In this document: positions 8,317-48,189 of the stretch, one piece after another
How positions within the stretch are numbered: the first letter of the stretch is position 1
Layout of the letters: every line of letters starts with the position of its first letter
From: Herbiconiux sp.
Lineage (GTDB): Bacteria > Actinomycetota > Actinomycetes > Actinomycetales > Microbacteriaceae
NCBI RefSeq assembly: GCF_023264855.1
Contig: NZ_JAHFUW010000025.1
Coordinates: forward strand, 1 to 57,085
Direction: 5' to 3'
DNA length: 57,085 nt
Position numbers and translations under genes: made by a program
The notes under the pieces: generated by a model
The model's input: only the letters and a program-made list of their open reading frames with translations
Database searches by the model: none
Told to the model about the DNA's origin: nothing

Positions 8317-8329
8317 TCAGCGCATCGGG

Positions 8330-9438: not shown

Positions 9439-9450
9439 TCCGCCCCGCGC

Positions 9451-9483
9451 CGCCCGGTTCCTCTCCCGCAGAGGAACCGGGCG
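9451..9483 (+). terminator. Strong intercistronic RNA hairpin between binding protein and ATPase
   Basis: A perfect 14-bp stem (9451-9464 with 9470-9483) and a CCCGC loop lie 12 bp after the binding-protein stop. No U-tract follows, so it is more likely a partial terminator or 3'-end stabiliser than a complete stop. Such hairpins often make the binding protein more abundant than the membrane components. Confidence 0.6.
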
Positions 9484-9551
9484 GCCCCGGCTCCGGCCGG
9501 GTACCCCTTCCAGCGACGACGCCGGGCATCCGGCAGAACGACCAGGCAGAC

Positions 9552-13254: not shown

Positions 13255-13356
13255 ACCGCCTTCCGGGCCCTTCGGGGCACCTTCTCCCAGCACAGCTCTG
13301 CCCTCGTGCAGCTCCGCCCCCGTTCGACGATGAAGCCGATTCAGGAGACATTCCGC
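13255..13356 (+). other. Short gap between importer and first GH43 gene
   Basis: 102 bp with no obvious promoter hexamers and no U-tract terminator. It holds a GC-rich imperfect repeat (GGGCCC near 13266) and, at 13343-13348, the AGGAGA ribosome binding site of the next gene. Read-through from the importer operon is plausible. Confidence 0.4.
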
Positions 13357-18303: not shown

Positions 18304-18343
18304 GCCGTACCATCCTCCATCACTACGACGAAGTAGGAAACGA

Positions 18344-21604: not shown

Positions 21605-21667
21605 CGAGCATCCCGACACCCGACGATCACCCGAGCAACTGACGACGACGACAGGAAGCAGACGACC

Positions 21668-24979: not shown

Positions 24980-25016
24980 CGCCGGAACGAACTCGAAGAC
25001 GAGCGAAGGATCGACG

Positions 25017-31451: not shown

Positions 31452-31641
31452 GGTCGGTGGGCCCTTCGATCGCATCGGGCGGACACCATCGAGGATACGT
31501 CGGGATCCGCGTCCCGTGGGCGGGTCCCGAGCGACCGACGGCGCGCGGGCCGCCAGAGTCTGTGGTGTATAGGCCACTAGCGTGAACGCTACGGGTTTCC
31601 ACGCTCTGTTCTCCAAGACATGCGGCCGGTAAGCATGAGGC
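31452..31641. other. Divergent intergenic region between GH8 gene and XRE regulator
   Basis: 190 bp separating two divergent starts. It must hold at least the GH8 promoter. A TGTGTATA-like stretch near 31562-31570 and a GAACGCTACGGGTTTCC segment downstream are possible promoter elements, but I see no convincing hexamer pair or palindrome. Confidence 0.4.
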
Positions 31642-31953
31642 GTGAATCCGACCGTGTCCGAGGCTGCGCGCCTGCTGGGCTCGCGCATCCGTGGAGAGCG
31701 TCTGCGGTTCGCGATCAGCCAGATGGAGCTCGCCGAACTCTCGGCGGTGCACTTCACGAACCTCGGCCGGATCGAGCGCGGTCAGGCCAACCCGTCGCTG
31801 CACACCATCATCCGTATTGCGGGCGCGCTGAACCTCGACCCGTCCGTGCTCGTCGCCGGCCTGGCGCCCGACCTCGTCCCGGTGCCGGCCCACCGAGTCA
31901 CGGTCGCCGACCTCATCCGCGCCCGCGAGGCCCAGGACGGCACCGCCTCGTAA
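31642..31953 (+). CDS. Small XRE-family DNA-binding protein
   Basis: A 103-residue, single-domain regulator. Residues about 10-70 form a lambda-repressor-like HTH (LLGSRIRGERLRFAISQMELAELSAVHFTNLGRIERGQANPSLHTIIRIAGAL). The remaining 30 residues have no recognised domain. The GTG at 31642 has a weak, very close GAGG; a GTG four codons later (31654) is an alternative. It may control the divergent GH8 gene or itself, but no operator is evident. Downstream, 29 bp away, lies the convergent kinase/aminotransferase fusion. Confidence 0.75.
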   Translation: MNPTVSEAARLLGSRIRGERLRFAISQMELAELSAVHFTNLGRIERGQANPSLHTIIRIAGALNLDPSVLVAGLAPDLVPVPAHRVTVADLIRAREAQDGTAS

Positions 31954-34964: not shown

Positions 34965-36943
34965 GCGGAGGCTCCTTCGGGGGTCGTCTCGAATTCGGTC
35001 GCCGCATCCGTGGTCGCCGCCTCGGCATCGCCCGGCAGGACGACATCCGAGGTGGGCACGGCGCAGCAGGTGAGGATGCGGCCGTCGGCCGGCCGGATCA
35101 CGGGTTCGGTGAGGTAGGCCACGGTTCCGGAGGCGAGGAACCGCTCACACGTGCCGCAGGCGCCGGAGCGGCAGGCGGAGGGCCAGTCCTGCCCCGCCGC
35201 CTCGGCGACGTCGAGCAGGCTGCCGGAGTCGGCCTTCCAGGTGGCGGCGCCGCCTTCGCGGCCGAAGCCGACCGTGAAGGGGCCGGGAAGCGGTGGCTGC
35301 TTCGGCTCGGGATCCGGCAGGACAGGCGTGTAGAACACGTCGAAGTGGATGCGCGAGCGGTGCACGCCCGCTCCCTCGAGGGCGTCGCGAGCGGCGTCGA
35401 GAAAGGGAGCGGGGCCGCACACGAACGCCGACACGGGGTCGAGGCGTACGCCGGCACCGCCGGAGAGGCGGATGGCCAGCTCGGCGATCTGCCCGGGGGA
35501 GGGCCGGCCGGCCCGCACGGTGAGTCGTGCGGACTCCGAACGGGCCACGCCCTCTCCCGTCAGGTGCAGGGTGAGGCGCGCATCCGGCAGGGTCTCGACG
35601 AGCTCGATCAGCTCCGCACGCAGGGCGACGTCGTCATCCGCTCGGTCGACGTGCAGCACCGCGACCGGGCGGGTCGAGCCGGCGGCCGCCAGTGCGCGCA
35701 GGATGGCGATGGTGGGCGTGATCCCGATGCCGGCGCTCAGCAGCACGACCGGCTCCGATTCCGCCGGCGCGAACTGCACCCGGCCGAACGGCCCGCTGAC
35801 GAGCACCTCGGATCCCTCGTGCAGGGTCTCGTGCACCGTGCGGGACAGGGTGCTGGCCCGCCTGACGGTGATGCGCACCCGCCCCGGCTCGATGCGCGAG
35901 ATCGTGTAGTTGCGCCAGTTCGGCGCGGCCTCGCCCGGAAAGTGCAGACGCACGTGCTGGCCCGCTGCGGCTCGGCACAGCAGGCCCACCGAGTCCTCGA
36001 GCCAGAGGCTCACCGCGTCGGCCGTCTCGTCGGCGCGGCCCGTGACCCTGGCGAGCCGAGGCCAGGTCTCCTCGGGGTGCAACGCCGGAGCATCGGGCCA
36101 GGGTGCGCCGGTGACGGCATCCGGAGCGCCGGTGACGACGGTGATCGGCGCGCCCACCGCGATCGACCCGGCGCTGCGGGGGCGCAGATACACCCCGCAG
36201 TACATGTGGCCGAGCCGGGAGGCGAGCGCGGCGGGAACGTTCAGATCGACCACCCCGGTGGCGGGATCGACGGTGGTGGCCCGGCAGCGGTCGGTCGGCT
36301 GGAAGACGTCGAACAGCACCTCGCCGATCGCGATCGTGGAGCCCACCAGCCCGAATTCCGACCAGGGCGGCAGGCCCTGCACGAGCAGGTTGCCGCGGAA
36401 CCGGCGCGGATCCACCGGCCGCCCCGTCGAGGCGGCCAGCGCGGCCACCGACTCGAGGTTGATCAGCGAGATCAGCGCCTTCGGCCAGTCCCACATCCGC
36501 ACGCTCGGGGCGGTGACGGATGCGGCACCGTGGCCACCGGGGGCGAACCACGAGCCGATCTCGCCGTTGGCCTCGTCGAGGTCGACCTCGGGAAAGCGGA
36601 TGCGGGCTTCCGCGCCGGCCGGGTTGCGGATGCGCAGGAGAACGGATGCGCCCGGTTCGTCGAGCCCCGCGTGCGGGTCGGCCGCCCCGGGGCCGTCGCC
36701 GGCCAGCGACGTCTCGAACAGGACGAGCTCGGGGTTCTTCGCGAGGTGGTGGAACACCGCGCGGGGCCGCCAGCCGCCAGCGTCGACGGGAGCGGCGGCA
36801 CCGGTCTCGATCGCGAGCACGCGGTCGAACGGCAGGCCTTCACCCGGAGTGATCCGCGCCCGGTGGGTCGAGACCCCCGGCAGGCCCTTGACGGGGAAAC
36901 GGGTGATGCGGGCCAGCGAGGCGCCGAGTTCGCGCTGCGTCAT
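34961..36943 (-). CDS. MOSC domain fused to FNR-type reductase and 2Fe-2S ferredoxin
   Basis: A 660-residue fusion. The N-terminal half (about 10-270) is a MOSC_N/MOSC pair like YcbX and mARC, with the expected molybdenum-ligand cysteine C220 in DRCRATTVDPATG. The middle (about 300-560) is a ferredoxin-NADP reductase-like FAD/NAD(P)H module (RNYTISR, GIGITPTIAILRAL, VCGPAPFLDAA). The C-terminus is a plant-type ferredoxin with C591, C596 and C599 plus a later Cys. mARC and YcbX reduce N-hydroxylated compounds using separate electron partners; here the chain is self-contained. I chose the ATG at 36943 because GGAG lies six bases upstream. A TTG at 37006 extends the frame by 21 residues but lies on the predicted operator. 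Confidence 0.86.
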   Translation of the reverse strand: MTQRELGASLARITRFPVKGLPGVSTHRARITPGEGLPFDRVLAIETGAAAPVDAGGWRPRAVFHHLAKNPELVLFETSLAGDGPGAADPHAGLDEPGASVLLRIRNPAGAEARIRFPEVDLDEANGEIGSWFAPGGHGAASVTAPSVRMWDWPKALISLINLESVAALAASTGRPVDPRRFRGNLLVQGLPPWSEFGLVGSTIAIGEVLFDVFQPTDRCRATTVDPATGVVDLNVPAALASRLGHMYCGVYLRPRSAGSIAVGAPITVVTGAPDAVTGAPWPDAPALHPEETWPRLARVTGRADETADAVSLWLEDSVGLLCRAAAGQHVRLHFPGEAAPNWRNYTISRIEPGRVRITVRRASTLSRTVHETLHEGSEVLVSGPFGRVQFAPAESEPVVLLSAGIGITPTIAILRALAAAGSTRPVAVLHVDRADDDVALRAELIELVETLPDARLTLHLTGEGVARSESARLTVRAGRPSPGQIAELAIRLSGGAGVRLDPVSAFVCGPAPFLDAARDALEGAGVHRSRIHFDVFYTPVLPDPEPKQPPLPGPFTVGFGREGGAATWKADSGSLLDVAEAAGQDWPSACRSGACGTCERFLASGTVAYLTEPVIRPADGRILTCCAVPTSDVVLPGDAEAATTDAATEFETTPEGASA

Positions 36944-36987
36944 CCGGTGCTCCGATCCTGGCCAGTCGTCCGTCGCCCACCATTGCA

Positions 36988-37005
36988 TGCCGGATCGTTC
37001 CGGCA
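36988..37005. promoter_or_regulatory. LacI-type operator at the MOSC-reductase promoter
   Basis: An 18-bp near-perfect palindrome, TGCCGGATCGTTCCGGCA on the plus strand, with the central CG step of LacI-family operators. It begins where the minus-strand promoter at 37013-37041 would start transcription. Read on the minus strand it matches the second copy at 37193-37210 at 17 of 18 positions. Confidence 0.75.
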
Positions 37006-37012
37006 AGGCAGC

Positions 37013-37041
37013 ACGTTAGCGCGGAAACACGTCTCGGTCAA
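37013..37041 (-). promoter_or_regulatory. Promoter for the MOSC-reductase/kinase operon
   Basis: On the minus strand a TTGACC -35 hexamer (37041-37036), a 17-bp spacer and a TAACGT -10 hexamer (37018-37013). Transcription would start near 37006, at the edge of the operator 36988-37005. Confidence 0.6.
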
Positions 37042-37154
37042 TGCGGCCGAAGTCGGCGGGTGGCCCGCCTCGCGCGCACGCGAGCCTCTTGCTGTACGAG
37101 GCCCCGTCGCCGCGCCGAATCGTGTTACGACTTCGTTTCCGAGCCCATTTCCGA

Positions 37155-37184
37155 TTGACGCCCGTTCCGGAACCGGTCTATATT
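37155..37184 (+). promoter_or_regulatory. Promoter for the oligopeptide-type importer operon
   Basis: A TTGACG -35 hexamer (37155-37160) and a TATATT -10 hexamer (37179-37184) with an 18-bp spacer. A GTTCCGGAAC palindrome (37164-37173) sits in the spacer. Transcription would start near 37191, directly before the operator at 37193-37210. Confidence 0.65.
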
Positions 37185-37192
37185 CGCCACCA

Positions 37193-37210
37193 TGCCGGAA
37201 CGATCCGGCT
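37193..37210. promoter_or_regulatory. LacI-type operator at the importer promoter
   Basis: TGCCGGAACGATCCGGCT, the second copy of the operator found at 36988-37005, in mirrored orientation and at the same place relative to its promoter (about +1 to +20). The probable regulator is the LacI-family protein encoded at 45863-46849. Confidence 0.75.
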
Positions 37211-37250
37211 CCCCGCGCTCCACCCTTCCCGCACCGAGGAGTACGCCCTG

Positions 37251-38867
37251 ATGAAGAGAACCCCGCTTGCGATCGGCCTGCTGGCCACCGCGCTCGTTCT
37301 GACCGCCTGCACGGCCCCGACGACGGAGTCGACGGCCGCCACCGAAGAGCAGCCCGGCTACCTCGCCGTCGCTGATCCGTCGCTCGCCACGGGCGGCGAC
37401 CTGAGCGTGCAGCTCGACTACGACTCGGTGGAGGCGAACGGGCTCGATCCGCAGACGGCCACCACCGCCCGATCCTGGACCCTGATGGGCCTGGTCTACG
37501 ACACCCTCGTCACCGTCGGTCCCGACTTCTCGATCGAGCCGGGTCTCGCCACGAGCTGGGACACGCCCTCCGACACCGAGTACGTGTTCACGCTTCGCGA
37601 CGACGCCGTGTTCTCCAACGGCCGGCCGATGACCGCGGACGACGTGGTGGGCAGCCTGCAGCGCCTGCTCGACAGCAAGTCGGACTGGTCGCTGCAGCTC
37701 GGCCAGGTCTCGTCGGTGCAGGCGACCGGCGGGAACGAGGTGACGGTGACGCTGGCTGCGCCCTACACGTCGTTCCTCGGCGCCCTCGCGAACACCCCGG
37801 CGGCCATCCTGCCGATGACCGAGATCGCCGACGGATCGGTCGACATCACCACGACGATGCTGGGCACCGGCCCCTACGTGGTGCAGGACCACGTGCAGGA
37901 CCAGTCCTGGACCTTCGGCCCGAACGAGCACTACTACGGCGCCGCGACCCGCGGCCCCGAATCGGTCGCCGTCGACATCGTGACCGAGGAGAACACCCGC
38001 CTTGCCGCCATCCGCGACGGCAGCGCCGACTACGCCTTCTTCAACAACGTCGACGCCCTCGACCTGCTCGGCGGCACCGAGAACGCCCGGGTGGTGAACC
38101 AGCAGAACACCGACTTCTACTACCTGATCATCAACTCGCAGAACCCGGATTCGCCGCTGGCCGACCAGAAGGTGCGCTTCGCCATCAACAGCGCGCTCGA
38201 CCGCCAGGAGATCTCCGACATCGCCCTCGCCGGCCAGGCCCTGCCCACCGGTGTCACCCCCGCCACTCTGCCGGGCGCCTGCCCCGCCGCCGACCTCCCT
38301 TCGGAGAAGCCGACGACCGACGAGATCAAACAGGCTCTCGCAGACGCCGGAGCCGAGGACCTCGACCTCACCATCACGCTCTACAACACCGAGCCCGCGC
38401 TGGCGCAGATCGCTCAGGTGATGCAGCAGGAGCTCGCGGCCGTGGGGGTGAACCTCACCATCGAGAACCTCGACATCGGATCGTTCGTCGACAAGATCTA
38501 CTCCAGCAGCCCCAGCGACATCGACCTCGCCCTCAGCTGGTACGCCGGCTACGGTGACGCCGCGATGGTGTCGAAGTGGTGGAACGGGGATGTCTCGACC
38601 TTCACCGCCGGCTTCAAGGCCAACGATCCCGCCCAGAACGCCCTGCAGGTGGCGGCCGGCTCCGAGCCCGCCGGCGCCGAGCGCGACGCCACCATGGTCG
38701 AGCTCTGCGCATCCGTCGACGAGTCGAGCGAGCTGGTGCCGCTGGTCACCCGCCCCGGCGTGATCGGCTACCGCACCGATTCGCTGAGCCCCACCATCAA
38801 CACGAACGAGGGCTACGGCAGCGTGCTGCGCGACATCGTCGACTACCGGATGATCGACGCGGGTTGA
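37251..38867 (+). CDS. Oligopeptide/dipeptide-type substrate-binding lipoprotein
   Basis: A 538-residue extracytoplasmic binding protein of the SBP_bac_5 (OppA/DppA/NikA) family. It has a lipobox (VLTAC, Cys about residue 19), then a mature domain with QTATTARSWTLMGLVYDTLV, LATSWDTPSDTEYVFTLRDDAVFSNG, and KVRFAINSALDRQEI in the second lobe. I chose the ATG at 37251 because GAGGAG lies nine bases upstream; the longer frame from 37041 crosses the promoter and operator. It is the first gene of a nine-gene plus-strand cluster with two permeases, two ATPases and three amide hydrolases. The ligand is unknown; peptides, amides or amino conjugates fit the family and neighbours. Confidence 0.92.
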   Translation: MKRTPLAIGLLATALVLTACTAPTTESTAATEEQPGYLAVADPSLATGGDLSVQLDYDSVEANGLDPQTATTARSWTLMGLVYDTLVTVGPDFSIEPGLATSWDTPSDTEYVFTLRDDAVFSNGRPMTADDVVGSLQRLLDSKSDWSLQLGQVSSVQATGGNEVTVTLAAPYTSFLGALANTPAAILPMTEIADGSVDITTTMLGTGPYVVQDHVQDQSWTFGPNEHYYGAATRGPESVAVDIVTEENTRLAAIRDGSADYAFFNNVDALDLLGGTENARVVNQQNTDFYYLIINSQNPDSPLADQKVRFAINSALDRQEISDIALAGQALPTGVTPATLPGACPAADLPSEKPTTDEIKQALADAGAEDLDLTITLYNTEPALAQIAQVMQQELAAVGVNLTIENLDIGSFVDKIYSSSPSDIDLALSWYAGYGDAAMVSKWWNGDVSTFTAGFKANDPAQNALQVAAGSEPAGAERDATMVELCASVDESSELVPLVTRPGVIGYRTDSLSPTINTNEGYGSVLRDIVDYRMIDAG

Positions 38868-38871
38868 TCTC

Positions 38872-39843
38872 ATGCGTCTCCTCCTCTGGCTGCCGGGGCG
38901 GCTGCTCGGTGCACTGGTCGTGCTGGTCGGGGTCTCGATCCTGATCTTCGCGGCCGTGCGCAGCCTCCCCGGCGGCTATGCGGACGTGATCCTCGGATCC
39001 CTGTCCTCTCCCGAAGCGCGGGCCGCCCTCGCCGAGCAGTACGGGCTCGACAAGTCGATCCCCGAGCAGTACCTGCTGTGGGTGCTCTCCGCGCTCCGCG
39101 GGGACTTCGGCACCTCGATGGTGAGCCAGCTGCCGGTGACGGACGAGTTCGCCTCGCGGTTGCCGCTCACGCTCGGTCTGGGCGTGATCGCCATCGCGCT
39201 GACCGTGCTGATCGGCATCCCGCTCGGCGTCTACACCGGCACCCGCTCCACCGGCGGGCGGTCCAGCGTGCTGGGCCGGCTGGTGAGCAGCATCGGCATC
39301 AGCGTGCCGGAGTTCGTGCTGGCGAGCGTGATCGTGTTCCTGTTCTCGCGTTTCGCGCTGGGGCTCCGGGTGGGGAACGTGGTGTCGCCCGCCACCGACC
39401 TGGCGGCGAGCATCCCCACGCTCATCCTGCCGGGCGTCGTGCTCGCGGTGTTCTGCATCGCCTCCACCGCCCGCACCACCCGCGACGCCGTGCTCGGCGT
39501 GCTGGTGGAGCCGCACGTGGGCGCGGCCGTCGCCCGCGGCGAATCGAAGGGCTTCATCATCCGTCACCACGTTCTGCGGAACGCCTCCATCCCCATCCTC
39601 ACCCTCGTGGCCACCCTCACCGCCTATCTGCTGGGTGGCGCCGTGATCGTCGAGACGGTGTTCGACGTGCCGGGCCTCGGCTCGTACCTCGTGCAGGCGC
39701 TCGGCCGCCGCGACTACGCCGTGATCCAGTCCGGCGTGCTGCTGGCCACCGTCGTGTTCGTCGTGATGAGCCTTCTCGTCGACGTGCTCACCGGCCTGAT
39801 CGACCCGCGGGTGAGCGTCGCGAAGAAAGGACGGTGGGCATGA
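38872..39843 (+). CDS. Oligopeptide-type ABC permease 1 (DppB/OppB-like)
   Basis: A 323-residue inner-membrane permease with about six hydrophobic helices. The DppB family start is clear (LLLWLPGRLLGALVVLVGVSILIFAAVRSLPGG, then EQYGLDKSIPEQYLLWV). So are the ISVPEFVLASVIVFLFSR segment and the ATPase-contact region ending FDVPGLGSYLVQALGRRDYAVIQSGVLL. It begins four bases after the binding-protein stop and overlaps the next permease start by ATGA. A good Shine-Dalgarno is not visible, so re-initiation from the upstream gene is likely. Confidence 0.93.
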   Translation: MRLLLWLPGRLLGALVVLVGVSILIFAAVRSLPGGYADVILGSLSSPEARAALAEQYGLDKSIPEQYLLWVLSALRGDFGTSMVSQLPVTDEFASRLPLTLGLGVIAIALTVLIGIPLGVYTGTRSTGGRSSVLGRLVSSIGISVPEFVLASVIVFLFSRFALGLRVGNVVSPATDLAASIPTLILPGVVLAVFCIASTARTTRDAVLGVLVEPHVGAAVARGESKGFIIRHHVLRNASIPILTLVATLTAYLLGGAVIVETVFDVPGLGSYLVQALGRRDYAVIQSGVLLATVVFVVMSLLVDVLTGLIDPRVSVAKKGRWA

Positions 39844-40733
39844 CCGGCACGGTCGCACCGATTCCGCGCGCCACCGCCGCGCAGGCCGCCCGGAGGGGAC
39901 TGCGCCGGGCGGCGACGACTCTCGATCCGCTCGCCACCGTGGCCGCCTGCGTGCTGCTGGCGATGTTCGCAGCCACGATCCTGGCCCGCCTGGTGGGACT
40001 CGGCGGCAGCCCGACCGAGATCGTCGGCACCCGGCTCGCGGCGCCCTCGCTCGCCTTCCCCCTCGGCACCGACAGCCTCGGCCGTTCGCTCGTGCCGCGG
40101 TTGCTGGAGGGAATCGGCACCACGCTGCTGCTCTCGGTGATCGCCGTGGCCATCACCGCGGTGCTCGCCTCCACCGCCGGCATCGTGGCCGGCTACCGTG
40201 GCGGCCGGGTGAACGGAACCATCATGCGCGTGGGCGACATGCTCTACGCCTTCCCCTCCATCATCCTGGCCATCCTGGTGGCCGCCGTGGTGGGCCCGGG
40301 GCAGGTGGCCGCGCTCGCCAGCATCGTGCTGGTGACCGTGCCGCTGATGACCCGCCTGGTGGCGGTCTCCTCCCGGGCCGTCGCCGACCGCGACTTCGTG
40401 GCCGCCGCGGTGATCAGCGGGGTCTCGACCCCGCGCATCCTGGTGCGGCACATCCTGCGGAACGTCGCCGGCACCATCGCGGTGCAGGGCACCTACGCGC
40501 TGTCGATCGCGATCCTGGTCGAGGGCGGCCTGAGCTTCCTCGGCTATGGCGTTCAGCTGCCGGGTTCCTCGCTCGGCCTCCTGATCAAAGAAGGCACGAC
40601 CTACATGGTGAAAGCCCCCTGGCTGATCGTCGCACCCGGTGTCGTGCTCGTGATCGCCATCCTCTGCATCAACGTCATCGGCGACAGCCTGCGCGACCGC
40701 CTCGAACCCCGGGAGACGAGGTCACTCGTATGA
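39840..40733 (+). CDS. Oligopeptide-type ABC permease 2 (DppC/OppC-like)
   Basis: A 297-residue permease partner. Family motifs include FPLGTDSLGRSLVPRLLEGIGTTLLLSV near residue 75, YRGGRVNGTIMRVGDMLYAFPSIILAI, and EGGLSFLGYGVQLPGSSLGLLIKEG near the C-terminus. The frame is open upstream as a shadow of permease 1; the ATG at 39840 overlaps that stop. Its own stop overlaps the next ATPase start (40730-40733), so the importer genes are tightly coupled. Confidence 0.93.
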   Translation: MTGTVAPIPRATAAQAARRGLRRAATTLDPLATVAACVLLAMFAATILARLVGLGGSPTEIVGTRLAAPSLAFPLGTDSLGRSLVPRLLEGIGTTLLLSVIAVAITAVLASTAGIVAGYRGGRVNGTIMRVGDMLYAFPSIILAILVAAVVGPGQVAALASIVLVTVPLMTRLVAVSSRAVADRDFVAAAVISGVSTPRILVRHILRNVAGTIAVQGTYALSIAILVEGGLSFLGYGVQLPGSSLGLLIKEGTTYMVKAPWLIVAPGVVLVIAILCINVIGDSLRDRLEPRETRSLV

Positions 40734-41737
40734 GCGCCCCGAACGCATCCGCGGCACAGATCGTCGTCGAGAACGCGGTGGTCGACTACGTCACCCCGAG
40801 CCGCACCGTGCGCGCCCTCGACGGCGCCACCCTGCGCATCCCGGCCGGCCAGAGGGTCGGTGTGGTGGGGGAGAGCGGATCGGGCAAATCCACGCTCGGC
40901 CTCCTGCTCGGGCGCCTCCTGCCGAGTCTCGCCACCGCCACCGGCGCGGTCGACGTGGCCGGCAGCCCCGTGCTCGAGCTCACACCCGCCGCGATCGCCC
41001 GGCTGCGCCGCAGCGAGCTCGCGTTCATCGCCCAGGACGCCGTGGGCTCCCTGAACCCCACGTTGCGGATCGGCCGGCAGCTGAGCCTGGCGATGCGGCC
41101 GGCGAAGCCCGCGCCGGGCGAGCTGGTGGCGATGCTGGAGCGGGTGAGGATCCGCGATCCCGAACGGGTGCTGCGGCTGTTCCCGCACGAGATCTCCGGC
41201 GGCATGGCCCAGCGCATCGCGATCGCCATGGCCATGCACCGTGCCCCGCGCATCCTGGTGGCCGACGAGCCCACCGCCGCGCTCGACACCCAGGTGCGCG
41301 ACGAGGTCACCCGGCTCGTCTTCGAGCTCGCCCGCGAGGCCGGAAGCACCGTGCTCTGGCTCAGCCACGACCTGATCGCGGTCGCGAAGTGGTGCGATCG
41401 CATCGTGGTGATGTACGGCGGGCGGGTGGTCGAAGACGGCGTGGCCGCCGAGGTCATCGCCCGGCCGCGGCATCCGTACACCGCGGCGCTCGCCGCCTCC
41501 CTGCCCGCGCGGCTGGCGCCCGGCGAACGGCTGCCCGCCATCACGGGCAGCCCGCTGGTGCTCACCGGCCCGGCCGCCGGATGCGCGTTCGCGCCCCGGT
41601 GCCCGTTCGCGGCGGAGCAGTGCTCGACCGTACGGCCCGAACCGGTGATCCGCGAGAGTCGCGGCATCCTCTGCCACCGGATCGACGAGATCCCGGCACT
41701 CGTGGCGGCCGGGGCGACGAGCGGGGAGACGTCATGA
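40730..41737 (+). CDS. Oligopeptide-type ABC ATPase 1 (DppD/OppD-like)
   Basis: A 335-residue ATPase with Walker A GESGSGKST near residue 50, a Q-loop FIAQD, signature ISGGMAQR, and Walker B ILVADEPTAALD, followed by SHDLIAVAKWCDRIVVMYGG. The C-terminal oligopeptide-type extension contains the conserved cysteine-rich CAFAPRCPFAAEQC segment (about residues 284-300), typical of OppD/DppD and possibly an iron-sulfur site. It overlaps both neighbours by ATGA. It would pair with ATPase 2 as a heterodimer under permeases 1 and 2. Confidence 0.93.
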   Translation: MSAPNASAAQIVVENAVVDYVTPSRTVRALDGATLRIPAGQRVGVVGESGSGKSTLGLLLGRLLPSLATATGAVDVAGSPVLELTPAAIARLRRSELAFIAQDAVGSLNPTLRIGRQLSLAMRPAKPAPGELVAMLERVRIRDPERVLRLFPHEISGGMAQRIAIAMAMHRAPRILVADEPTAALDTQVRDEVTRLVFELAREAGSTVLWLSHDLIAVAKWCDRIVVMYGGRVVEDGVAAEVIARPRHPYTAALAASLPARLAPGERLPAITGSPLVLTGPAAGCAFAPRCPFAAEQCSTVRPEPVIRESRGILCHRIDEIPALVAAGATSGETS

Positions 41738-42489
41738 TCGAGAACGTGCTCGAACTCGACCAGGTCTCGACGGTGTTCCGCTCCGGCTGGGGCCGCGGCC
41801 GGCGCGAGCTCACGGCGATGGACGACATCACCCTCTCGGTGCCCGCGGGCGAGACCCTGGGCCTGGTCGGGGAATCCGGATCGGGCAAGACGACCACCGG
41901 ATCCGTGGCCCTCGGCCTCCGCCGGCCCACCTCGGGCACCGTGCGGTTTCTCGGGCGGCCGTTCGACCGGCGACGGGGCACGGCGGGGCAGATCCAGGCC
42001 GTGTTCCAGAACCCGAACTGGTCGCTGAACCCCCGGCTCACCGTGGGTGCCTCGATCGCCGAACCGCTGTCGGCGGCCGAGGGCGGCTCGCTGAGCTCGC
42101 ACGAAGACGCCGTACTGACGATGCTCGACGAGGTGGGCCTGCACCGCTCGGTGGCCGAGCGGCACCCGCACGAGCTCTCGGGCGGGCAGCGGCAGCGGGT
42201 CGCCGTGGCCCGGGCGCTGATCACCCGGCCGCGCTTCATCGTGTTCGACGAGGCGGTGAGCGCGCTCGACGTCTCGGTGCAGGCGCAGGTTCTCAACCTC
42301 ATCAAAGACCTGCAGGCGCAGAACGGATTCGCCGCCCTGTTCATCTCGCACGACCTCGGCGCCGTGCGATACGTGTCCCACCGCATCGCGGTGATGCGGC
42401 TCGGCGAGATCGTCGAGCTGGCCGAGACCGAGCGCTTCTACGACGCACCCGAACACGACTACTCACGACGACTCCTGGAGGGCATGTGA
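41734..42489 (+). CDS. Oligopeptide-type ABC ATPase 2 (DppF/OppF-like)
   Basis: A 251-residue ATPase, shorter than OppF because it lacks the usual C-terminal Cys-rich extension. Walker A is GESGSGKTT near residue 47, then QAVFQNPNWSLNPRLTVG, signature LSGGQRQR, Walker B FIVFDEAVSALD and LFISHDLGAVRYVSHRIAVM. The ATG at 41734 overlaps the ATPase 1 stop, and its own stop overlaps the first NylC-like gene (42486-42489). This direct coupling ties amide hydrolase production to the importer. Confidence 0.92.
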   Translation: MIENVLELDQVSTVFRSGWGRGRRELTAMDDITLSVPAGETLGLVGESGSGKTTTGSVALGLRRPTSGTVRFLGRPFDRRRGTAGQIQAVFQNPNWSLNPRLTVGASIAEPLSAAEGGSLSSHEDAVLTMLDEVGLHRSVAERHPHELSGGQRQRVAVARALITRPRFIVFDEAVSALDVSVQAQVLNLIKDLQAQNGFAALFISHDLGAVRYVSHRIAVMRLGEIVELAETERFYDAPEHDYSRRLLEGM

Positions 42490-43538
42490 CCACGAACGAC
42501 AGCACCGAGGCCGGCGAGGCCGCCGTGCACCGGCTGACCCCGGTGCCCGATTTCGGCGACCGCCCGGGCAACGACGACGCCGAGCTGGTGCCCTCCTACG
42601 GCTCGGGCAGCGGATCGGTGCCCTACGACTTCGACGGCGTGCTGGTGGGCACGGCCGAGTACGAGGCGGGCCCCACCGGCGCCACCGTGATCGCCATCCC
42701 GGCCGGCGCGCGGATGGCGATCGACGCCCGAGGCGGCGCCATCGGCCTGACCAGCGGTTTCGAGTTCCACGCGCACGCCATCTGCCTCGCGGGCGGTTCG
42801 ATCTACGGGCTCGCGGCCGGCGCGGGGGTGCAGGACGAACTGCTCCGCCGCGCCGGCAACCGCACCTCGGTCGGCGCCCTCCGACTTGTCTCCACGGCCG
42901 TCATCTACGACTTCGCGGCGCGCGACAACGCGGTGTACCCGGATGCGGCGCTCGGCCGCGCGGCTCTGCTCGCCGCGAAGACCGACCGCATCCCGGTGGG
43001 CCGGGTGGGGGCGGGATCGAGTGCCTCCAGTGGCAAGGTCGACTGGGGCCGCTGCGAGTTCACCGGCCAGGGCGCCGCCTTCGGGCGCTACGGCGAGTTG
43101 AAGGTGCTCGTCGTCACGGTGGTGAACCCGGTCGGCGTGATCGTCGACCGCAGCGGCGCCGTCGTCCGCGGCAACTACTCCTCGGCCACCGGCGAACGCC
43201 ATGCGACCGCCGACGACTACGAGGCGGCGCTCTCTGAGGGCAGTTCGCCCGTCACCCGGAACGGCAACACCACTCTCACCGTCGTGGTGACCAACGTGCG
43301 CCTCACCGACCGCGAACTCGCGTTCTTCGGGCGTCAGGTGCACGGCTCGATGCACCGCGCCATCCAGCCCTTCCACACCACCCACGACGGCGACACCCTG
43401 TTCGCGCTCACGACCGACGAGGTCGACCTGCCACCGCACGGGTCGTCCGACCGGGGAGTGAACGCGGTCAGCTCGATCGCTCTCGCCACGGTCGCCTCCG
43501 AGCTGGCGTGGGACGCCGTGCTGAGCAGCGTCTCGTGA
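42486..43538 (+). CDS. NylC-like Ntn amide hydrolase 1 (S58/P1 family)
   Basis: A 350-residue DmpA/NylC-superfamily autoprocessing hydrolase. Relatives cleave nylon oligomers (NylC), beta-peptides (BapA) or N-terminal amino acids (DmpA), after self-cleavage that frees an N-terminal nucleophile. The motif GNTT places the predicted cleavage between N261 and T262, with T262 as nucleophile, as in NylC (Asn266/Thr267). Other family blocks are EEGPTGATV-like residues near 55-62, AIDARGGAIGLTSG near 79, STAVIYDFAARDNAVYPDAALGRAAL, and QVHGSMHRAIQPFHTTHDGDTLFA near 285. No signal peptide is visible, so it should act in the cytoplasm on imported substrate. A second paralogue follows. Confidence 0.88.
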   Translation: MTTNDSTEAGEAAVHRLTPVPDFGDRPGNDDAELVPSYGSGSGSVPYDFDGVLVGTAEYEAGPTGATVIAIPAGARMAIDARGGAIGLTSGFEFHAHAICLAGGSIYGLAAGAGVQDELLRRAGNRTSVGALRLVSTAVIYDFAARDNAVYPDAALGRAALLAAKTDRIPVGRVGAGSSASSGKVDWGRCEFTGQGAAFGRYGELKVLVVTVVNPVGVIVDRSGAVVRGNYSSATGERHATADDYEAALSEGSSPVTRNGNTTLTVVVTNVRLTDRELAFFGRQVHGSMHRAIQPFHTTHDGDTLFALTTDEVDLPPHGSSDRGVNAVSSIALATVASELAWDAVLSSVS

Positions 43539-43600
43539 GCGCCCCCCGCGCCGGCGGCATCTCCCGCCCCGACATCCCCACCACCAGAACGGAACACGCG

Positions 43601-44668
43601 ATGGATGCGCAGCAGCAGTTCGTGACGGCCGTCGAGGCCGCGAGGGCGGCGGGCGGCCCCCGCCTCGTGCCCGAGCCGGTCTACGGCGACGGCCTCGGCA
43701 ACGCCGACTTCGACCTCACCCCGGTCACCCTGCCGGGCACCGGCCGGGTCGCCTTCGACTTCCCCGGAGTCAGCGTCGGCACCGCCGAATACCTCGAGGG
43801 CCCCACGGGCGCGACGGTGCTGCACTTCGACAAGCCCGCCCGCACGGCGGTCGACGCCCGGGGTGGCGCCATCGGCATCACCGGCAAGTACGAGACCGTC
43901 AACGACGCCATCTGCCTCACCGGCGGCTCGGTCTACGGCCTCGCCGCCGCCACCGGTGTCGAGGACGAGCTGCTGCGCCGACGCCACGGGCGCGTGGGCT
44001 GGGCCGACCTGCAGACCGTCTCCGGTGCCGTCATCTACGACTTCGGGGCGCGCGACAACGCGGTGTCCCCGGATGCGGCGCTCGGCCGGGCGGCGCTGCT
44101 CGCTGCCTCGACCGAGAGCATCCCGGTCGGCCGCTGCGGCGCCGGCGTCAGCGCCTCGGCCGGCAAGATCGACTGGAGCCGGATCGAGTACACCGGGCAG
44201 GGTGCCGCCTTCCGTCAGGTCGGGGCGGTGAAGATCCTGGTGGTCACGATCGTGAACCCGGTCGGCGTGGTGATGGATCGCGACGGCACCATCGTCCGCG
44301 GCAACTACGATCGCGCGACCGGCGCCCGCCGGCATCCGTCGCTCGACTACGAGGCGGCCTTCGCGGCCGGCACCGAGCCGACCTCGGTGGGCGGCAACAC
44401 CACCATCACCTGCCTCGTCACCAACGTGCGGCTGGCCGACAAGGAGCTCGAGCACTTCGGCCGCCAGGTGCACAGCTCGATGGCGCGCGCCATCCAGCCC
44501 TTCCACACCACCCACGACGGCGACACCCTCTTCACCGTCACCACCGACGAGGTGGAGCTGCCGGCCGCCGGCGCCCGCCCGTTCGGCGTCGACTCCATCA
44601 ACTCGGTCGGCCTCGGCACCATCGCCGCCGAGGTGGCGTGGGATGCGGTGCTCGCGAGCAGCCGATGA
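43601..44668 (+). CDS. NylC-like Ntn amide hydrolase 2 (S58/P1 family)
   Basis: A 355-residue paralogue of the preceding gene and the same length as I recall for NylC. The predicted self-cleavage is N266/T267 in GGNTTITC, the same numbering as the well-studied nylon-oligomer hydrolase NylC. Matching blocks include FDFPGVSVGTAEYLEGPTGATV, TAVDARGGAIGITG, SGAVIYDFGARDNAV, SASAGKIDWSR and QVHSSMARAIQPFHTTHDGDTLFTVTTDE. I chose the ATG at 43601 because the resulting N-terminus aligns with NylC. An in-frame GTG at 43535, overlapping the previous stop, is the alternative. It lacks a signal peptide. Nylon itself is an unlikely natural substrate; omega-amino amides or similar oligomers fit better. 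Confidence 0.88.
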   Translation: MDAQQQFVTAVEAARAAGGPRLVPEPVYGDGLGNADFDLTPVTLPGTGRVAFDFPGVSVGTAEYLEGPTGATVLHFDKPARTAVDARGGAIGITGKYETVNDAICLTGGSVYGLAAATGVEDELLRRRHGRVGWADLQTVSGAVIYDFGARDNAVSPDAALGRAALLAASTESIPVGRCGAGVSASAGKIDWSRIEYTGQGAAFRQVGAVKILVVTIVNPVGVVMDRDGTIVRGNYDRATGARRHPSLDYEAAFAAGTEPTSVGGNTTITCLVTNVRLADKELEHFGRQVHSSMARAIQPFHTTHDGDTLFTVTTDEVELPAAGARPFGVDSINSVGLGTIAAEVAWDAVLASSR

Positions 44669-44725
44669 GCGGGCGATGATCCGCCGCCCCCGCAGAACCA
44701 CCCGTCACCAGCAGGAAAGCACAGC

Positions 44726-45799
44726 ATGACCGTTCACAGATTCGTGTCCACCGAGACGGATCCCTTCCGCCGCGGAATCGAGCTCGGCCGCTTCGGCGCC
44801 GTCGACATCCGCGCGAACATCGACATCTACACCGAGCTGTTCCGCACCGTGGGCGTGACAGCGGCGGCCTTGCGCGAGCAGGGCGGGGAATCCATCCGGC
44901 GAATCCGCGACTGGGCGCCCGAGCTCGAGGCCGAGCTGCGTGGCGTGGCCGAAGGATCGGGCGTGCCGCTGGAATCGCTCGGGATGCTCAACGCGCGCAC
45001 CGAGGTGCTGGCGATCGTCGGCGAGACCGGCGAGGGGGAGTGCTCCACCGTCGTCTCCGTGCCCGACGGCGCAGCACCGCGGTCGATGCAGACCTGGGAC
45101 TGGCACGACGAGTCGAACGCGAACACACTCGTGGTCGAGCATCCGCGGGCCGGCGGAGGGACGGTGAAGTACTTCACCGAGTTCGGGCTGCTCGGCAAGA
45201 TCGGGCTGAACAGCGACGGCCTCGGGGTGCACTTCAACATCCTGAACAACGCGGCCGACGGCGACCACGTGGGGGTGCCGGTGCACGCGGTGGCGCGGCA
45301 GATCCTGGAGGAGGCCTCGACGGTGGCGGAGGCGATCGCGATCGCGCGCTCGGCCGAGGTCACGGCCTCGACCGTGCTCACCGTCACCACCTTCGACGGC
45401 GAGCGGGGCGACGCGGCCTGCATCGAGCTCAGCCCGGAGCGCACGGCGGTCATCCCGGTCGACGACTCGCGCCTGCTCGTGCACACCAACCACTTCCTCG
45501 ACGAGCAGCTCGCGGCGGGCGAGCTGTCGCTGGATCGCTCGAGCACCTACCCGCGGCGGCGCATGCTGGCCGAGCGCGCCGAGGTGTTCGCCGGTGCCGA
45601 CCCGGTCGATCGGGCGCTGGCCATGGTGATCCATCAGGAGGACGGCGCGGCGGTGTGCTGCCATCCGGATCCGGCGCTGCCGCCGCACCTGCGCTGGGAG
45701 TCGCTGATCACGATCGGTCTCGATCTGCAGGGCACCACCCTGCAGTTCCACGACAGCCGGCCGTGCCAGGTGCGGCGGGAATCGTGGCAGAGCTTCTGA
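44726..45799 (+). CDS. C45-type Ntn hydrolase (acyl-CoA:6-APA acyltransferase / Tan-like)
   Basis: A 357-residue protein of the penicillin acyltransferase (C45) family. Members cleave themselves before a Cys to expose the nucleophile. They include isopenicillin N acyltransferase and the insect beta-alanyl-dopamine hydrolase Tan. Family blocks are DWAPELEAELRGVAEGSGVPLESLGMLNARTE (about 55-88), the nucleophile C106 in GECSTVV, QTWDWHDE, and LLGKIGLNSDGLGVHFNIL. The usual Gly before the Cys is replaced by Glu here. CAGGAAAG precedes the ATG. It is the third self-activating amide hydrolase in a row, 57 bp after the second NylC-like gene, with no signal peptide. Confidence 0.82.
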   Translation: MTVHRFVSTETDPFRRGIELGRFGAVDIRANIDIYTELFRTVGVTAAALREQGGESIRRIRDWAPELEAELRGVAEGSGVPLESLGMLNARTEVLAIVGETGEGECSTVVSVPDGAAPRSMQTWDWHDESNANTLVVEHPRAGGGTVKYFTEFGLLGKIGLNSDGLGVHFNILNNAADGDHVGVPVHAVARQILEEASTVAEAIAIARSAEVTASTVLTVTTFDGERGDAACIELSPERTAVIPVDDSRLLVHTNHFLDEQLAAGELSLDRSSTYPRRRMLAERAEVFAGADPVDRALAMVIHQEDGAAVCCHPDPALPPHLRWESLITIGLDLQGTTLQFHDSRPCQVRRESWQSF

Positions 45800-45862
45800 G
45801 CGCCCTGCCGCGGATTCCGGGCGGGCGCATACGATGAAGGCATCCATGAGCGAGGGGCGGGC

Positions 45863-46849
45863 GTGGGCTCAGCAACGATAGTCGACGTGGCGCGCGCCGC
45901 CGGGGTCTCCAAGACCACGGCGTCGGACGCGCTGCGCGGTCACGGGCGTGTGTCGGAGGCCACCCGGGTCGCGGTGGCCGAGGCTGCGGCGAGCCTGGGC
46001 TACACGATCAACCGCTCGGCGCGCTCGCTGCGCACGGCCACCACCGGGGCGATCGGGCTGTACGTGCCGCAGGTGATCTTCCGCTCGGAGTACTACCTGT
46101 CGTTCGTGTACGGCGTCGCGAACGAGGCGGCGAAGGCCGAGTACGACGTGACGCTCATCATGTCGGGTCAGCTGCCGAGCCACGGGCACCTGCCCAACGT
46201 CGACGGCATCGTGCTGTGCGACCCGGTGGCCTCCGACCCCGTCGTGCGCGGTCTGATGGCCACGGGACTGGCCGTCGTCACCTGCGAGCGCTACAACGGC
46301 GACCGGGTGCCCAACGGGGTCATATGGTCGGACCACGCCGCGTATCTCGAGCAGTTGCTCGACGAGCTCGCGGGGGCGGATGCCCGTCATCCGGCGATGC
46401 TCGCCTCCACCACGGTCTCGGACTGGTCGATCTCGCTGGTGCAGAAGTACCGCAGCTGGTGCCTCGCCCGGGGCATCGAGCCGGTCATCCGCGAGGTGCC
46501 CTTCGGCACCGATCCCGCCGCGCTGCAGGACACCACGCTGCAGTTCCTGCAGGAGAACCCCACGGTGGACGCACTGGTCTGCGCCGCCGACGGGGTGGCG
46601 GCCGCCGCGATCCCGGCCATCCGGCTGCACGGTCGCACCATCGGCGAGGACTTCCTGCTCGCCTCCTGCGTCGACGGCACCTCGATGCGTATCGCCGATC
46701 CCGCGATCACCGCCATCGACACCAAGGGCGGCGAGGCCGGCAGCGAGTGCGCCCGCCTGCTCTTCGAACTGCTCGACGGCTCCACCCCCGAGGGCACCGT
46801 GCGCGAGATGCCCCTCGAGCTCAACCAGCGCGCCTCCACCGGCGCCTGA
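45863..46849 (+). CDS. LacI-family transcriptional regulator (amide hydrolase locus)
   Basis: A 328-residue LacI/GalR-type regulator. Residues about 5-55 carry the HTH and hinge (TIVDVARAAGVSKTTASDALRG, then SARSLRTATTGAIGLYVP). The effector domain follows, with CDGTSMRI-type hinge segments near the C-terminus. GAGGGG precedes the GTG start at 45863. A TACGAT -10-like hexamer at 45830-45835 suggests its own promoter in the 63-bp gap. It is the best candidate to bind the duplicated 18-bp operators at 36988-37005 and 37193-37210. The effector could be the imported compound or its hydrolysis product. It ends convergently with zapE. Confidence 0.9.
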   Translation: MGSATIVDVARAAGVSKTTASDALRGHGRVSEATRVAVAEAAASLGYTINRSARSLRTATTGAIGLYVPQVIFRSEYYLSFVYGVANEAAKAEYDVTLIMSGQLPSHGHLPNVDGIVLCDPVASDPVVRGLMATGLAVVTCERYNGDRVPNGVIWSDHAAYLEQLLDELAGADARHPAMLASTTVSDWSISLVQKYRSWCLARGIEPVIREVPFGTDPAALQDTTLQFLQENPTVDALVCAADGVAAAAIPAIRLHGRTIGEDFLLASCVDGTSMRIADPAITAIDTKGGEAGSECARLLFELLDGSTPEGTVREMPLELNQRASTGA

Positions 46850-46885
46850 CCCGTCCGCCTCCACCTCCTCCACCTCTACCACTTG

Positions 46886-46969
46886 TCCAAAACGAAGGAG
46901 CTTTTCGCCGACGCGCCGGTCGGCGCTCGCCGCAGGCGGCGTGGCGGGAAGAAACTCCTTCGTTTTGGA
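46886..46969. repeat. Large inverted repeat with 15-bp perfect arms between lacI and zapE
   Basis: TCCAAAACGAAGGAG (46886-46900) is repeated in inverse as CTCCTTCGTTTTGGA (46955-46969). The 54 bases between contain further GC-rich hairpins, such as GCCGACgcgccgGTCGGC and GCCGcaGGCGGC-like pairs. It lies between convergent genes and could be a two-way terminator. The AT-rich outer arms around a GC-rich core also resemble a small dispersed repeat (REP- or MITE-like). Confidence 0.75.
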
Positions 46970-46980
46970 TGGCGAGAGTG

Positions 46981-48189
46981 TCAGGAGACCACGCGCAGGA
47001 GGGCGAGGCGGCTGGCGAGCCGGGCGTCGCCCGCGCGGGCGACCGCCGCGATCTGCTCGTCGCGCGAGACCTCCGACAGCATCACGGTCGGCACTCCCGC
47101 GTCGCAGAGTACATCGACGGCCGTGAGGAAGCGCAGCTGCGCGTCGCGCGCGAGCCGGCCGTAGCCAGGCACGCCCGTGATGACCCAGCGCGCGGGGAAG
47201 CGGTCGGCCCAGTCGAGGTACTCCATCGTCGAAAGAGGCCGCAGGCAGAGCTGCTCGAAGCTCACCCAGAGCTCGCCGGGCCGGGCGGCCGTCACCTCGA
47301 ACGAGCGGCCGCCGATCCGCAGTTCGCCGGCCTCGCCGGGGCCGGGGGAACGCAGGCCGAGCGCCTCCAGCGCAGCTTCGGCCTCGGGCGCCCTGCCCGT
47401 GCCGAGTGCGCTCTCCGCTTCCGACGCTGCGACCGTGCCGGTCGCGCTTCCTGCGTCCGGCGTGCCGAGGGCCCCGCCGTGCACCCACGCGCCGGCCGCG
47501 AACCCGTCCCGCCGCTCGGCGGAGCGCCCGTCGGCGTGCTGCCGGTAGTCGACCTCGCCGGCGAGCTCCAGCACGTCCATCTCGGCGCGGATCAGCCGGA
47601 TGCCGGGCTCCATCAGATGGTGCCGCACCGGATCCGGCAGCAGTTCTTCCGGCGCCTGGTTCGACGACAGCAGCAGCGCCACCCCGTCGTCGCGCAGGTC
47701 GTGCAGCACCCGCACCAGCAAGGTCGCGTTGCCCGGGTCGTCGACATGGAACTCGTCGAACACGAGCAGGCGCGCGCCACCCACCAGCTCGCGCAGGGTG
47801 CGCTCGAACGCTTCCTGCCGATGCTCGGGATCGCGCCCGCGCTGCACGAACAGCTCCCGGTGCAGCGCGTCGAAGAAACCGTGCGAGTGCACCCGGCGAA
47901 CGGGCCCGGATGCCGCGGGCAGCACGCGCACGAAGGCGTCGAGCAGCCAGGTCTTGCCGCGCCCGACGGGCCCCCACAGGTACACGCCCCGAGGCGGGTC
48001 CGATCCCTCCGGGCCACTCGCGACGGGCGGCGTCGGAGACGGATCCGCGTTCTGCTCGTCGTTCTCCGGTGCCGACGGTTCGGCCCGTTCCAGCTCCCGG
48101 GCCAGCACCTCCAGCCGCGCGAGCGCGGCGCGCTGACCGGCATCCAGCTCGAACCCGGCCGAGACGGCCTGCTGCTCGACGGCGAGCAT
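46981..48189 (-). CDS. zapE: ZapE/AFG1-family ATPase
   Basis: A 402-residue P-loop ATPase related to the division protein ZapE and mitochondrial AFG1/LACE1. Walker A is GPVGRGKT (about residue 73), with the family-typical RRVHSHGFFDALHRE segment. Walker B is LLVFDEFHVDD, followed by LLLSSNQAPEELLPD. An Ala/Glu-rich insert at about 235-290 is unusual and probably a flexible loop. The ATG overlaps the mshD stop by one base (TGATG), so it is probably co-transcribed with glnR and mshD. Its exact role in actinobacteria is not established. Confidence 0.88.
   Translation of the reverse strand: MLAVEQQAVSAGFELDAGQRAALARLEVLARELERAEPSAPENDEQNADPSPTPPVASGPEGSDPPRGVYLWGPVGRGKTWLLDAFVRVLPAASGPVRRVHSHGFFDALHRELFVQRGRDPEHRQEAFERTLRELVGGARLLVFDEFHVDDPGNATLLVRVLHDLRDDGVALLLSSNQAPEELLPDPVRHHLMEPGIRLIRAEMDVLELAGEVDYRQHADGRSAERRDGFAAGAWVHGGALGTPDAGSATGTVAASEAESALGTGRAPEAEAALEALGLRSPGPGEAGELRIGGRSFEVTAARPGELWVSFEQLCLRPLSTMEYLDWADRFPARWVITGVPGYGRLARDAQLRFLTAVDVLCDAGVPTVMLSEVSRDEQIAAVARAGDARLASRLALLRVVS

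What the first reader, a model, noticed from the sequence alone, without database searches (positions are those of the whole stretch)
36943..46849. Candidate new amide-utilisation regulon: oligopeptide-type importer coupled to three self-activating Ntn hydrolases
Nine plus-strand genes run from a binding lipoprotein through two permeases, two ATPases, two NylC-like hydrolases and a C45-type hydrolase to a LacI regulator. Importer and first hydrolase genes overlap by four bases. Two unrelated Ntn families, both known to cleave unusual amide bonds (nylon oligomers, beta-peptides, beta-alanyl amines, penicillins), sit behind one transporter. None has a signal peptide, so hydrolysis should follow import. 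The divergent operon adds a kinase/phospho-lyase-type fusion and a MOSC reductase. I infer a pathway that imports an amide-linked compound, hydrolyses it and processes the amine. I know of no described system with this composition.
Basis: partly seen in the sequence, partly recalled or inferred. Interest (0 to 1): 0.85.

Follow-up and report, generated by a model that had tools for sequence, protein, structure and literature searches.

The report
Amide-import regulon with nylon-hydrolase relatives
A bacterium, probably an actinobacterium, carries one repressor-controlled gene set that probably imports an unknown natural amide, cuts it with close relatives of the enzyme known for breaking nylon fragments, and breaks down the released amine, which suggests where a nylon-cutting enzyme came from.

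Summary
Nine plus-strand genes (37251-46849) encode an SBP_5 lipoprotein, two permeases, two ATPases, two S58 hydrolases, a C45 hydrolase and a LacI protein. Divergent to them lie a MOSC-reductase and a kinase/class-III-PLP fusion. This is not a chance neighbourhood: the importer directly precedes an S58 gene in 27 of 30 homologous loci. A 16-bp palindrome, GCCGGAWCGWTCCGGC, sits at both divergent promoters and exactly nowhere else in the held 4.37-Mb genome. It recurs in 22 of 23 loci that pair importer and this LacI. Both S58 proteins are NylC-clade (about 60% identical to nylon-oligomer hydrolase); one 84% identical to NylC lies in the same kind of cluster in another genome of the family. 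In 17 of 30 loci a copper amine oxidase stands in for the window's amine genes. I infer a LacI-repressed pathway that imports an amine-capped amide, hydrolyses it inside the cell and deaminates the amine. The substrate is unknown. This looks like the native setting of NylC, whose published preference for amides with the amine outward fits (PMC13343204).

The parts
31983..34964 (-). APH (kinase-like) + middle region + class-III PLP enzyme fusion (PRK06149 type); PLP half closest to ethanolamine-phosphate phospho-lyases
   Evidence: Pfam; NCBIfam NF004800 1301.9 bits, cut-off 973; 6tor 1.5e-101 and 5g4i 5.7e-80
34961..36943 (-). MOSC + FAD/NAD reductase + 2Fe-2S fusion, 4-base overlap with the next gene
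   Evidence: Pfam (run on the longer ORF from 37006); start chosen from an RBS-like stretch and the operator position
36989..37004 (-). operator O1, exact GCCGGAWCGWTCCGGC, at the MOSC promoter
37013..37041 (-). sigma-70-like promoter TTGACC-17-TAACGT facing the MOSC operon
   Evidence: not found by the stricter scan
37155..37184 (+). sigma-70-like promoter TTGACG-18-TATATT facing the importer operon
37194..37209 (+). operator O2, exact GCCGGAWCGWTCCGGC, just downstream of the importer promoter
37251..38867 (+). substrate-binding lipoprotein, SBP_bac_5
   Evidence: Pfam; start; lipobox read from sequence
38872..39843 (+). permease 1
   Evidence: Pfam
39840..40733 (+). permease 2
   Evidence: Pfam (within ORF 39078-40733); start
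40730..41737 (+). ATPase 1 with oligo_HPY
   Evidence: Pfam
41734..42489 (+). ATPase 2
   Evidence: Pfam (within ORF 41389-42489); start
42486..43538 (+). S58 hydrolase 1, NylC clade, 59.6% identical to NylC
   Evidence: Pfam
43601..44668 (+). S58 hydrolase 2, NylC clade, 60.2% identical to NylC
   Evidence: Pfam; start
44726..45799 (+). C45 (AAT/IAT-type) Ntn hydrolase with invariant Cys106
   Evidence: Pfam; NF040521; alignment
45863..46849 (+). LacI-family regulator, proposed repressor at O1 and O2
   Evidence: Pfam; operator co-occurrence

Best explanation
This is a LacI-repressed catabolic regulon for an amine-capped amide. A lipoprotein and an Opp-type ABC importer bring the compound in. 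NylC-type hydrolases self-cleave at Asn/Thr and cut an amide so that the outer amine leaves. A C45 enzyme cuts another amide or trims the acyl part. The freed amine is deaminated: in the window by the kinase/phospho-lyase-type fusion (if the amine is an amino alcohol), in 17 of 30 loci by a copper amine oxidase, 9 of these with an aldehyde dehydrogenase of one type close by. The MOSC-reductase probably removes an N-oxygen or supplies electrons (weakest step). LacI sits at both divergent promoters until the compound or a product releases it. The cluster is the likely native setting from which plasmid NylC was drawn. Shown here: gene content, conservation, operator, promoter layout, catalytic residues, phylogeny. 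Inferred: direction of transport, substrate class, reaction order, LacI-operator pairing, repression, origin of NylC. Unknown: the compound.
For: Gene order in 30 loci (recounted in 104): importer directly before S58 in 27, C45 in 23, LacI in 27 (one of these, G245, through). Exact operator only at the two divergent promoters in the own genome. In 25 cluster-bearing genomes 22 of 24 exact sites lie at the cluster, reversed-pattern control 0. TTGnnn-N16-19-TAnnnT ends 6-14 bases before 24 of 25 cluster operators, and on the opposite side of 0 of 25. NylC residues N219, N266, T267, D306, D308 kept in 39 of 39 aligned S58 rows. NylC pairs with the 84%-identical G864 cluster protein, 100/99. Copper amine oxidase in 17 of 30 and APH-AT3 in 4 of 30 loci, never both. 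Published assays: NylC enzymes cut amides with the amine outward, and the authors suggest that a carboxylate nearby may hinder (PMC13343204, section 6 read).
Against: No expression or biochemical data. No exact operator in 8 of 30 loci (G245 also in 60): the three APH-AT3 loci L049, L051, L053; the G864 NylC-like locus (its LacI is only 32% identical); L050; the importer-less LacI+S58 loci L031 and L101; and G245, whose LacI is 54% identical. So the locus that links NylC most closely lacks this operator. The operator of G983 (L100), found last, has no strict promoter beside it by eye. A deaminating enzyme (copper amine oxidase or APH-AT3) is in only 21 of 30; L025, L035 and L050 have MOSC-reductase alone, 6 have none of the three. 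APH-AT3 relatives also lie away from the cluster in G653, G864, G721, G866 and G541, so that family has other jobs. K189 is kept in 32 of 39 rows. Loci were picked by S58 similarity. The system is rare: 5 of 299 family genomes, own included, and no match in 15 congeners.
Confidence: 0.76

Rival explanations
1. The importer brings in ordinary or beta-/gamma-linked peptides, the S58 enzymes act as DmpA/BapA-like aminopeptidases, and the amine genes are incidental.
For: Opp-type importer; S58 includes DmpA/BapA (recalled); two Variovorax plasmids have SBP-P-P-A-A-S58, one of them (the annotated record) followed by an M81 metallopeptidase, and no C45 or LacI match in either. Nine of 30 loci have no deaminating enzyme.
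Against: S58-2 matches NylC at about 1e-121 and other S58 structures far more weakly. A deaminating enzyme lies in 21 of 30 loci. O1 puts MOSC and APH-AT3 beside the same operator.
Confidence: 0.16
2. Hydroxamate siderophore catabolism: the amide is a desferrioxamine-like chain of pentamethylene units (chemically close to nylon oligomers), cut by NylC-type enzymes; the MOSC protein reduces the N-hydroxy group and the amine (cadaverine type) is oxidised.
For: MOSC proteins of the YcbX/mARC type reduce N-hydroxylated compounds (recalled). One operator-plus-promoter site outside the cluster in G653 stands before a PepSY_TM gene, a family linked to iron reduction (recalled). Nylon-like spacing of amides (chemistry).
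Against: SBP_5 importers are not the usual siderophore type (recalled). The kinase/phospho-lyase fusion has no obvious role with cadaverine. MOSC-reductase is in only 4 of 30 loci. No iron-box search was done.
Confidence: 0.1
3. The cluster is a recent adaptation to man-made polyamides.
For: Close kinship to NylC.
Against: Divergence (mostly about 50-65% identity to NylC), an S58 duplication shared by three genera and the same operator in several families look far older than nylon.
Confidence: 0.02
4. Two independent operons that merely abut, with LacI serving only the importer.
For: MOSC or APH-AT3 is in only 7 of 30 loci.
Against: A second exact operator with its own promoter faces the MOSC gene in the window, G653 and G233.
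Confidence: 0.05

Closest known systems
[quoted passage not shown] PDB 5xyg/3axg)
   Same: Same S58 clade, about 60% identity, same autocleavage Asn/Thr and acidic pair; 84% identity to a cluster protein in G864
   Different: Known as a plasmid nylon-waste enzyme; here two copies inside a LacI-operator import operon; nylon activity untested
C45 family (isopenicillin N acyltransferase, PDB 2x1c)
   Same: AAT domain, NCBIfam C45_proenzyme above cut-off, Cys106 in 23 of 23 cluster C45 sequences aligned
   Different: Only remote similarity to the solved enzyme (6.6e-23); coupled to NylC-type enzymes
ETNPPL / Arthrobacter phospholyase (PDB 6tor, 5g4i; organism of 5g4i recalled)
   Same: PLP half best matches these two; shared GNGHP stretch
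   Different: Fused to an APH kinase domain (PRK06149 architecture); own substrate unknown
Phenylethylamine oxidase (PDB 1rjo; Arthrobacter, recalled)
   Same: The copper amine oxidase of L029 aligns almost end to end, NYD cofactor site and YFDTGEY stretch kept
   Different: Not in the window cluster; several positions recalled as substrate-pocket residues differ, so specificity cannot be transferred
Opp/Nik-type SBP_5 ABC importers
   Same: All five components in order
   Different: SBP only weakly like any solved one (best 1.3e-32)

Membership tests
NylC-type S58 hydrolase | Asn266/Thr267 autocleavage site and Thr nucleophile | tested here: met
   N and T present in both window proteins and 39 of 39 aligned rows; the site itself is in the abstract of PMC6021441 (listing)
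NylC-type S58 hydrolase | Other catalytic positions K189, N219, D306, D308 (recalled) | tested here: met
   All kept in both window proteins; in the set K189 32 of 39, the others 39 of 39
NylC-type S58 hydrolase | Groups with NylC apart from other S58 | tested here: met
   Tree of 39 rows: 30-row clade with NylC 97/96
NylC-type S58 hydrolase | Hydrolyses 6-aminohexanoate oligomers | not testable with these tools
   needs enzyme assay
C45 Ntn hydrolase | AAT/C45 profile and conserved nucleophile Cys | tested here: met
   PF03417 1.4e-16, NF040521 228.6 bits over cut-off 85, Cys106 in 23 of 23
Opp-type SBP_5 importer | SBP lipoprotein, two permeases, two ATPases | tested here: met
   lipobox by eye
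LacI-family repressor | LacI HTH plus periplasmic-binding-like domain | tested here: met
   PF00356 and PF13377 above cut-off
LacI-family repressor | Palindromic operator with central CG (recalled family trait) at its promoters | tested here: met
   binding itself not tested
Kinase + ethanolamine-phosphate-type phospho-lyase fusion (PRK06149) | APH + class-III PLP fusion above NCBIfam cut-off | tested here: met
   NF004800 1301.9 vs 973; Pfam
Kinase + ethanolamine-phosphate-type phospho-lyase fusion (PRK06149) | Phospho-lyase rather than transaminase activity | not testable with these tools
   needs enzyme assay
YcbX/mARC-type MOSC reductase | MOSC_N + MOSC with Moco-binding Cys and electron-transfer domains | tested here: inconclusive
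   MOSC over cut-off, MOSC_N 21.2 bits below its 25 cut-off; Cys in PTDRCRATTVDP read by eye; N-reduction untested
Copper amine oxidase arm | Cu_amine_oxid gene in the cluster | tested here: not met
   No match in the window stretch 27001-57085; present in 17 of 30 loci; two copies elsewhere in the own genome

The most novel reading that the evidence does not exclude
NylC-clade hydrolases evolved inside this LacI-controlled import regulon to strip the amine end from a natural nylon-like amide chain, possibly a pentamethylene hydroxamate such as desferrioxamine, with the MOSC protein reducing the N-hydroxy group. The nylon-waste plasmid then borrowed an existing pathway module rather than evolving one.
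Probability: 0.12. Interest if true: 0.88.

Novelty: new variant of a known kind. Interest (0 to 1): 0.72.

Why it matters
As far as I know, the natural role of nylon-oligomer hydrolases is an open question; what I saw of five nylon papers and one NylC paper names none. A conserved, operator-marked regulon around NylC-clade enzymes gives a concrete way to find the natural substrate: the LacI protein is a ready inducer sensor, the importer a binding assay, and the amine genes hint at what kind of product leaves. It also offers divergent NylC relatives with intact catalytic positions for polyamide work.

Tried and rejected
Tried: a scan of named genomes with S58-2 gave one distant MAG locus in which I recognised no importer or C45 gene on reading its ORFs. 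A rule that S58 alone brings the importer fails for G132 and G1005, which have LacI+S58 only. A rule that every importer-linked LacI of this type has the operator fails for G245. The second extra operator in G653 (L095) lies inside a DUF6325 gene with no promoter beside it and is taken as chance. The flanks of APH-AT3 away from the cluster gave no clear substrate: in G721 and G866 it stands by an APC-type permease, in G721 below the ethanolamine-permease cut-off. The amine-oxidase pocket comparison was inconclusive. Literature: no listed paper in searches describes this cluster; several listings were capped (for example 15 of 67, 12 of 27,278, 15 of 254) and the library holds only CC-licensed papers. 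The pOAD2 sequence paper (Kato 1995) is not held. From memory only, it reports opp-like and penDE-like reading frames on pOAD2; if so, NylC's own plasmid carries this module. That is unverified. The plasmid collection holds no S58 above 61% identity to the G864 protein, so pOAD2 could not be read there.

Rows dropped or not read: of 18 plasmid records with an S58 match I opened 4 and counted one (L021) among the 30 loci. In the S58 tree L053 was left out because it reads in pieces, and L024 was cut to its last 420 residues. L004-L010, L012 and L022-L024 are not among the 30 loci (weak or distant matches). Every match at the stated thresholds was opened.

Full report
What is there. The window is part of a held genome of 4.37 Mb in 97 contigs. 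Divergently lie a MOSC/FNR/Fer2 fusion (34961-36943) and an APH-Aminotran_3 fusion (31983-34964). Five junctions overlap by four bases.

Conservation. Close relatives of S58-2 are rare: 8 of 394 class genomes at 1e-50, 16 of 250 and 4 of 22 genomes of two other families at 1e-60 (these samples overlap), 5 of 299 in the own family at 1e-40, and 3 of 396 in the order at 1e-80 with the G864 protein as query. The counts include the own genome. None of 15 congeners has a match at 1e-3. I read gene order by tblastn in 28 loci and 2 found later, 30 in all, window included, and recounted them. SBP-P1-P2-A1-A2 directly precedes S58 in 27 of 30 (in L053 several genes read in pieces). C45 is present in 23, LacI in 27 (26 in the loci, G245's through), FMN_bind_2 in 17, a copper amine oxidase between LacI and SBP or divergent from SBP in 17, MOSC-reductase in 4 and the APH-AT3 fusion in 4. 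The copper amine oxidase never occurs with MOSC-reductase or APH-AT3. A deaminating enzyme (amine oxidase or APH-AT3) is in 21 of 30; L025, L035 and L050 have MOSC-reductase alone; L031, L036, L037, L038, L100 and L101 have none of the three. An aldehyde dehydrogenase of one type lies in 9 of the 17 amine-oxidase loci and of another type, farther off, in 3. Two Variovorax plasmids carry the same importer-S58 order without a C45 or LacI match; one, the annotated record, has an M81 peptidase next. G506 splits the window's gene set over two loci: importer-S58-APH-AT3, and S58-C45-LacI(31%)-MOSC.

Operator. Reading the divergent promoter regions of the window, G653 and G233 side by side showed the same 16-bp palindrome twice in each. 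In the own genome GCCGGAWCGWTCCGGC is exact at 36989-37004 and 37194-37209 and nowhere else. With up to two mismatches there are 35 further sites, all with two, against 9 for the reversed control pattern, so a background of near-matches exists. In 25 other cluster-bearing genomes, 19 have exact sites, 24 in all, 22 of them at the cluster; the reversed control gave 0. Of 23 loci with importer and a LacI at least 39% identical, 22 have the exact operator; G245 does not, nor does the NylC-like G864 locus, whose LacI is only 32% identical. G983 was found after the motif was defined and has it. Of 25 cluster operators tested, 24 have TTGnnn-16 to 19-TAnnnT ending 6-14 bases before them and facing the regulated genes; on the opposite side the strict motif occurs 0 of 25 times. 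The G983 site, looked at by eye afterwards, has no such promoter, which makes 24 of 26. The general promoter scan of 36800-47100 found the importer promoter but not the MOSC one. This is the layout of repression by a LacI protein lying across the start of transcription; binding was not tested. One of the two extra sites in G653 has the same promoter layout in front of a PepSY_TM gene; the other is inside a gene.

NylC. S58-2 matches solved NylC at about 1e-121, Nyl12 at 4e-55 and other S58 more weakly. Against the NylC fragment, S58-1 and S58-2 are 59.6% and 60.2% identical and the G864 cluster protein 84.1%. In a maximum-likelihood tree of 39 rows, NylC pairs with the G864 protein (100/99) inside a 30-row clade (97/96). 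S58-1 and S58-2 descend from a duplication shared with G653 and G233. The autocleavage and catalytic positions are kept, K189 in 32 of 39 rows and the rest in all. C45 keeps Cys106 in 23 of 23. A 2026 paper (PMC13343204; section 6 read, passages) reports that NylC enzymes cut amides whose amine faces outward with over 94% selectivity and suggests that a nearby carboxylate may hinder. That is what an enzyme releasing an amine for an amine oxidase would need; the inference is mine. In the other nylon papers I saw only passages (PMC10858056, PMC6021441, PMC13215870, PMC11879879) and one short genome note in full (PMC5408104); what I saw gave no natural role.

Amine arm. The PLP half of the window fusion is closest to ethanolamine-phosphate phospho-lyase 6tor and phospholyase 5g4i; the whole is NCBIfam NF004800. 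The amine oxidase of L029 is closest to phenylethylamine oxidase. Either arm would make an aldehyde and ammonia from a primary amine (established chemistry of these families, recalled). This points to an amide that yields a primary amine. Candidates, in my order: an amino alcohol such as ethanolamine, an arylethylamine, a diamine. The evidence does not choose.

Verdict. The parts are known families and the scheme (import, hydrolyse, deaminate, LacI control) is of a known kind. What is new, as far as my searches reach, is the specific regulon, its operator, and the likelihood that it is the native home of NylC.

Noticed in passing
window 13306-29123: Four large consecutive proteins, each with CW_binding_2 and Laminin_G_3 domains and three of them with glycosyl hydrolase 43, next to a GH8+CWB2 protein at 29187-31757 and, by eye, a sugar-type ABC importer with its own LacI (5495-12205).
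   Followed up: partly
window 46886-46900 and 46955-46969: 15-base inverted repeat (TCCAAAACGAAGGAG) in the convergent gap after LacI; could be a terminator or small mobile element.
   Followed up: no
L094 8095-8110: In G653 an exact operator with matching promoter stands before a PepSY_TM gene outside the cluster, a possible third regulon member.
   Followed up: partly
L036 and L077: G864 has, beside its NylC-like cluster, a second unit with LacI-like gene, SBP_5 importer, C45 and FMN_bind_2 but no S58 match in the stretches read: C45 may be the more general partner of such importers.
   Followed up: no
L037 12791-15857, L038 4413-7495: Styrene-monooxygenase-like gene, EthD, flavin reductase and AraC-type regulator directly after the cluster in G721 (Pfam); the same order is read by eye in G866.
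   Followed up: no
L024 4112-5771: Sinorhizobium fredii plasmid with annotated aspartate 1-decarboxylase and D-alanine--D-alanine ligase genes several kb upstream of an amidase and a P1 family peptidase.
   Followed up: no
L053 about 5690-10680: In G446 the SBP, both ATPases and the S58 gene give tblastn matches in pieces, by decay or sequencing error; left as it is.
   Followed up: no
L049 5434-6297 and L051 14260-15195: A class-II glutamine amidotransferase gene (Pfam for L049; L051 by eye) lies near the APH-AT3 version of the cluster: another Ntn-fold amide enzyme.
   Followed up: no
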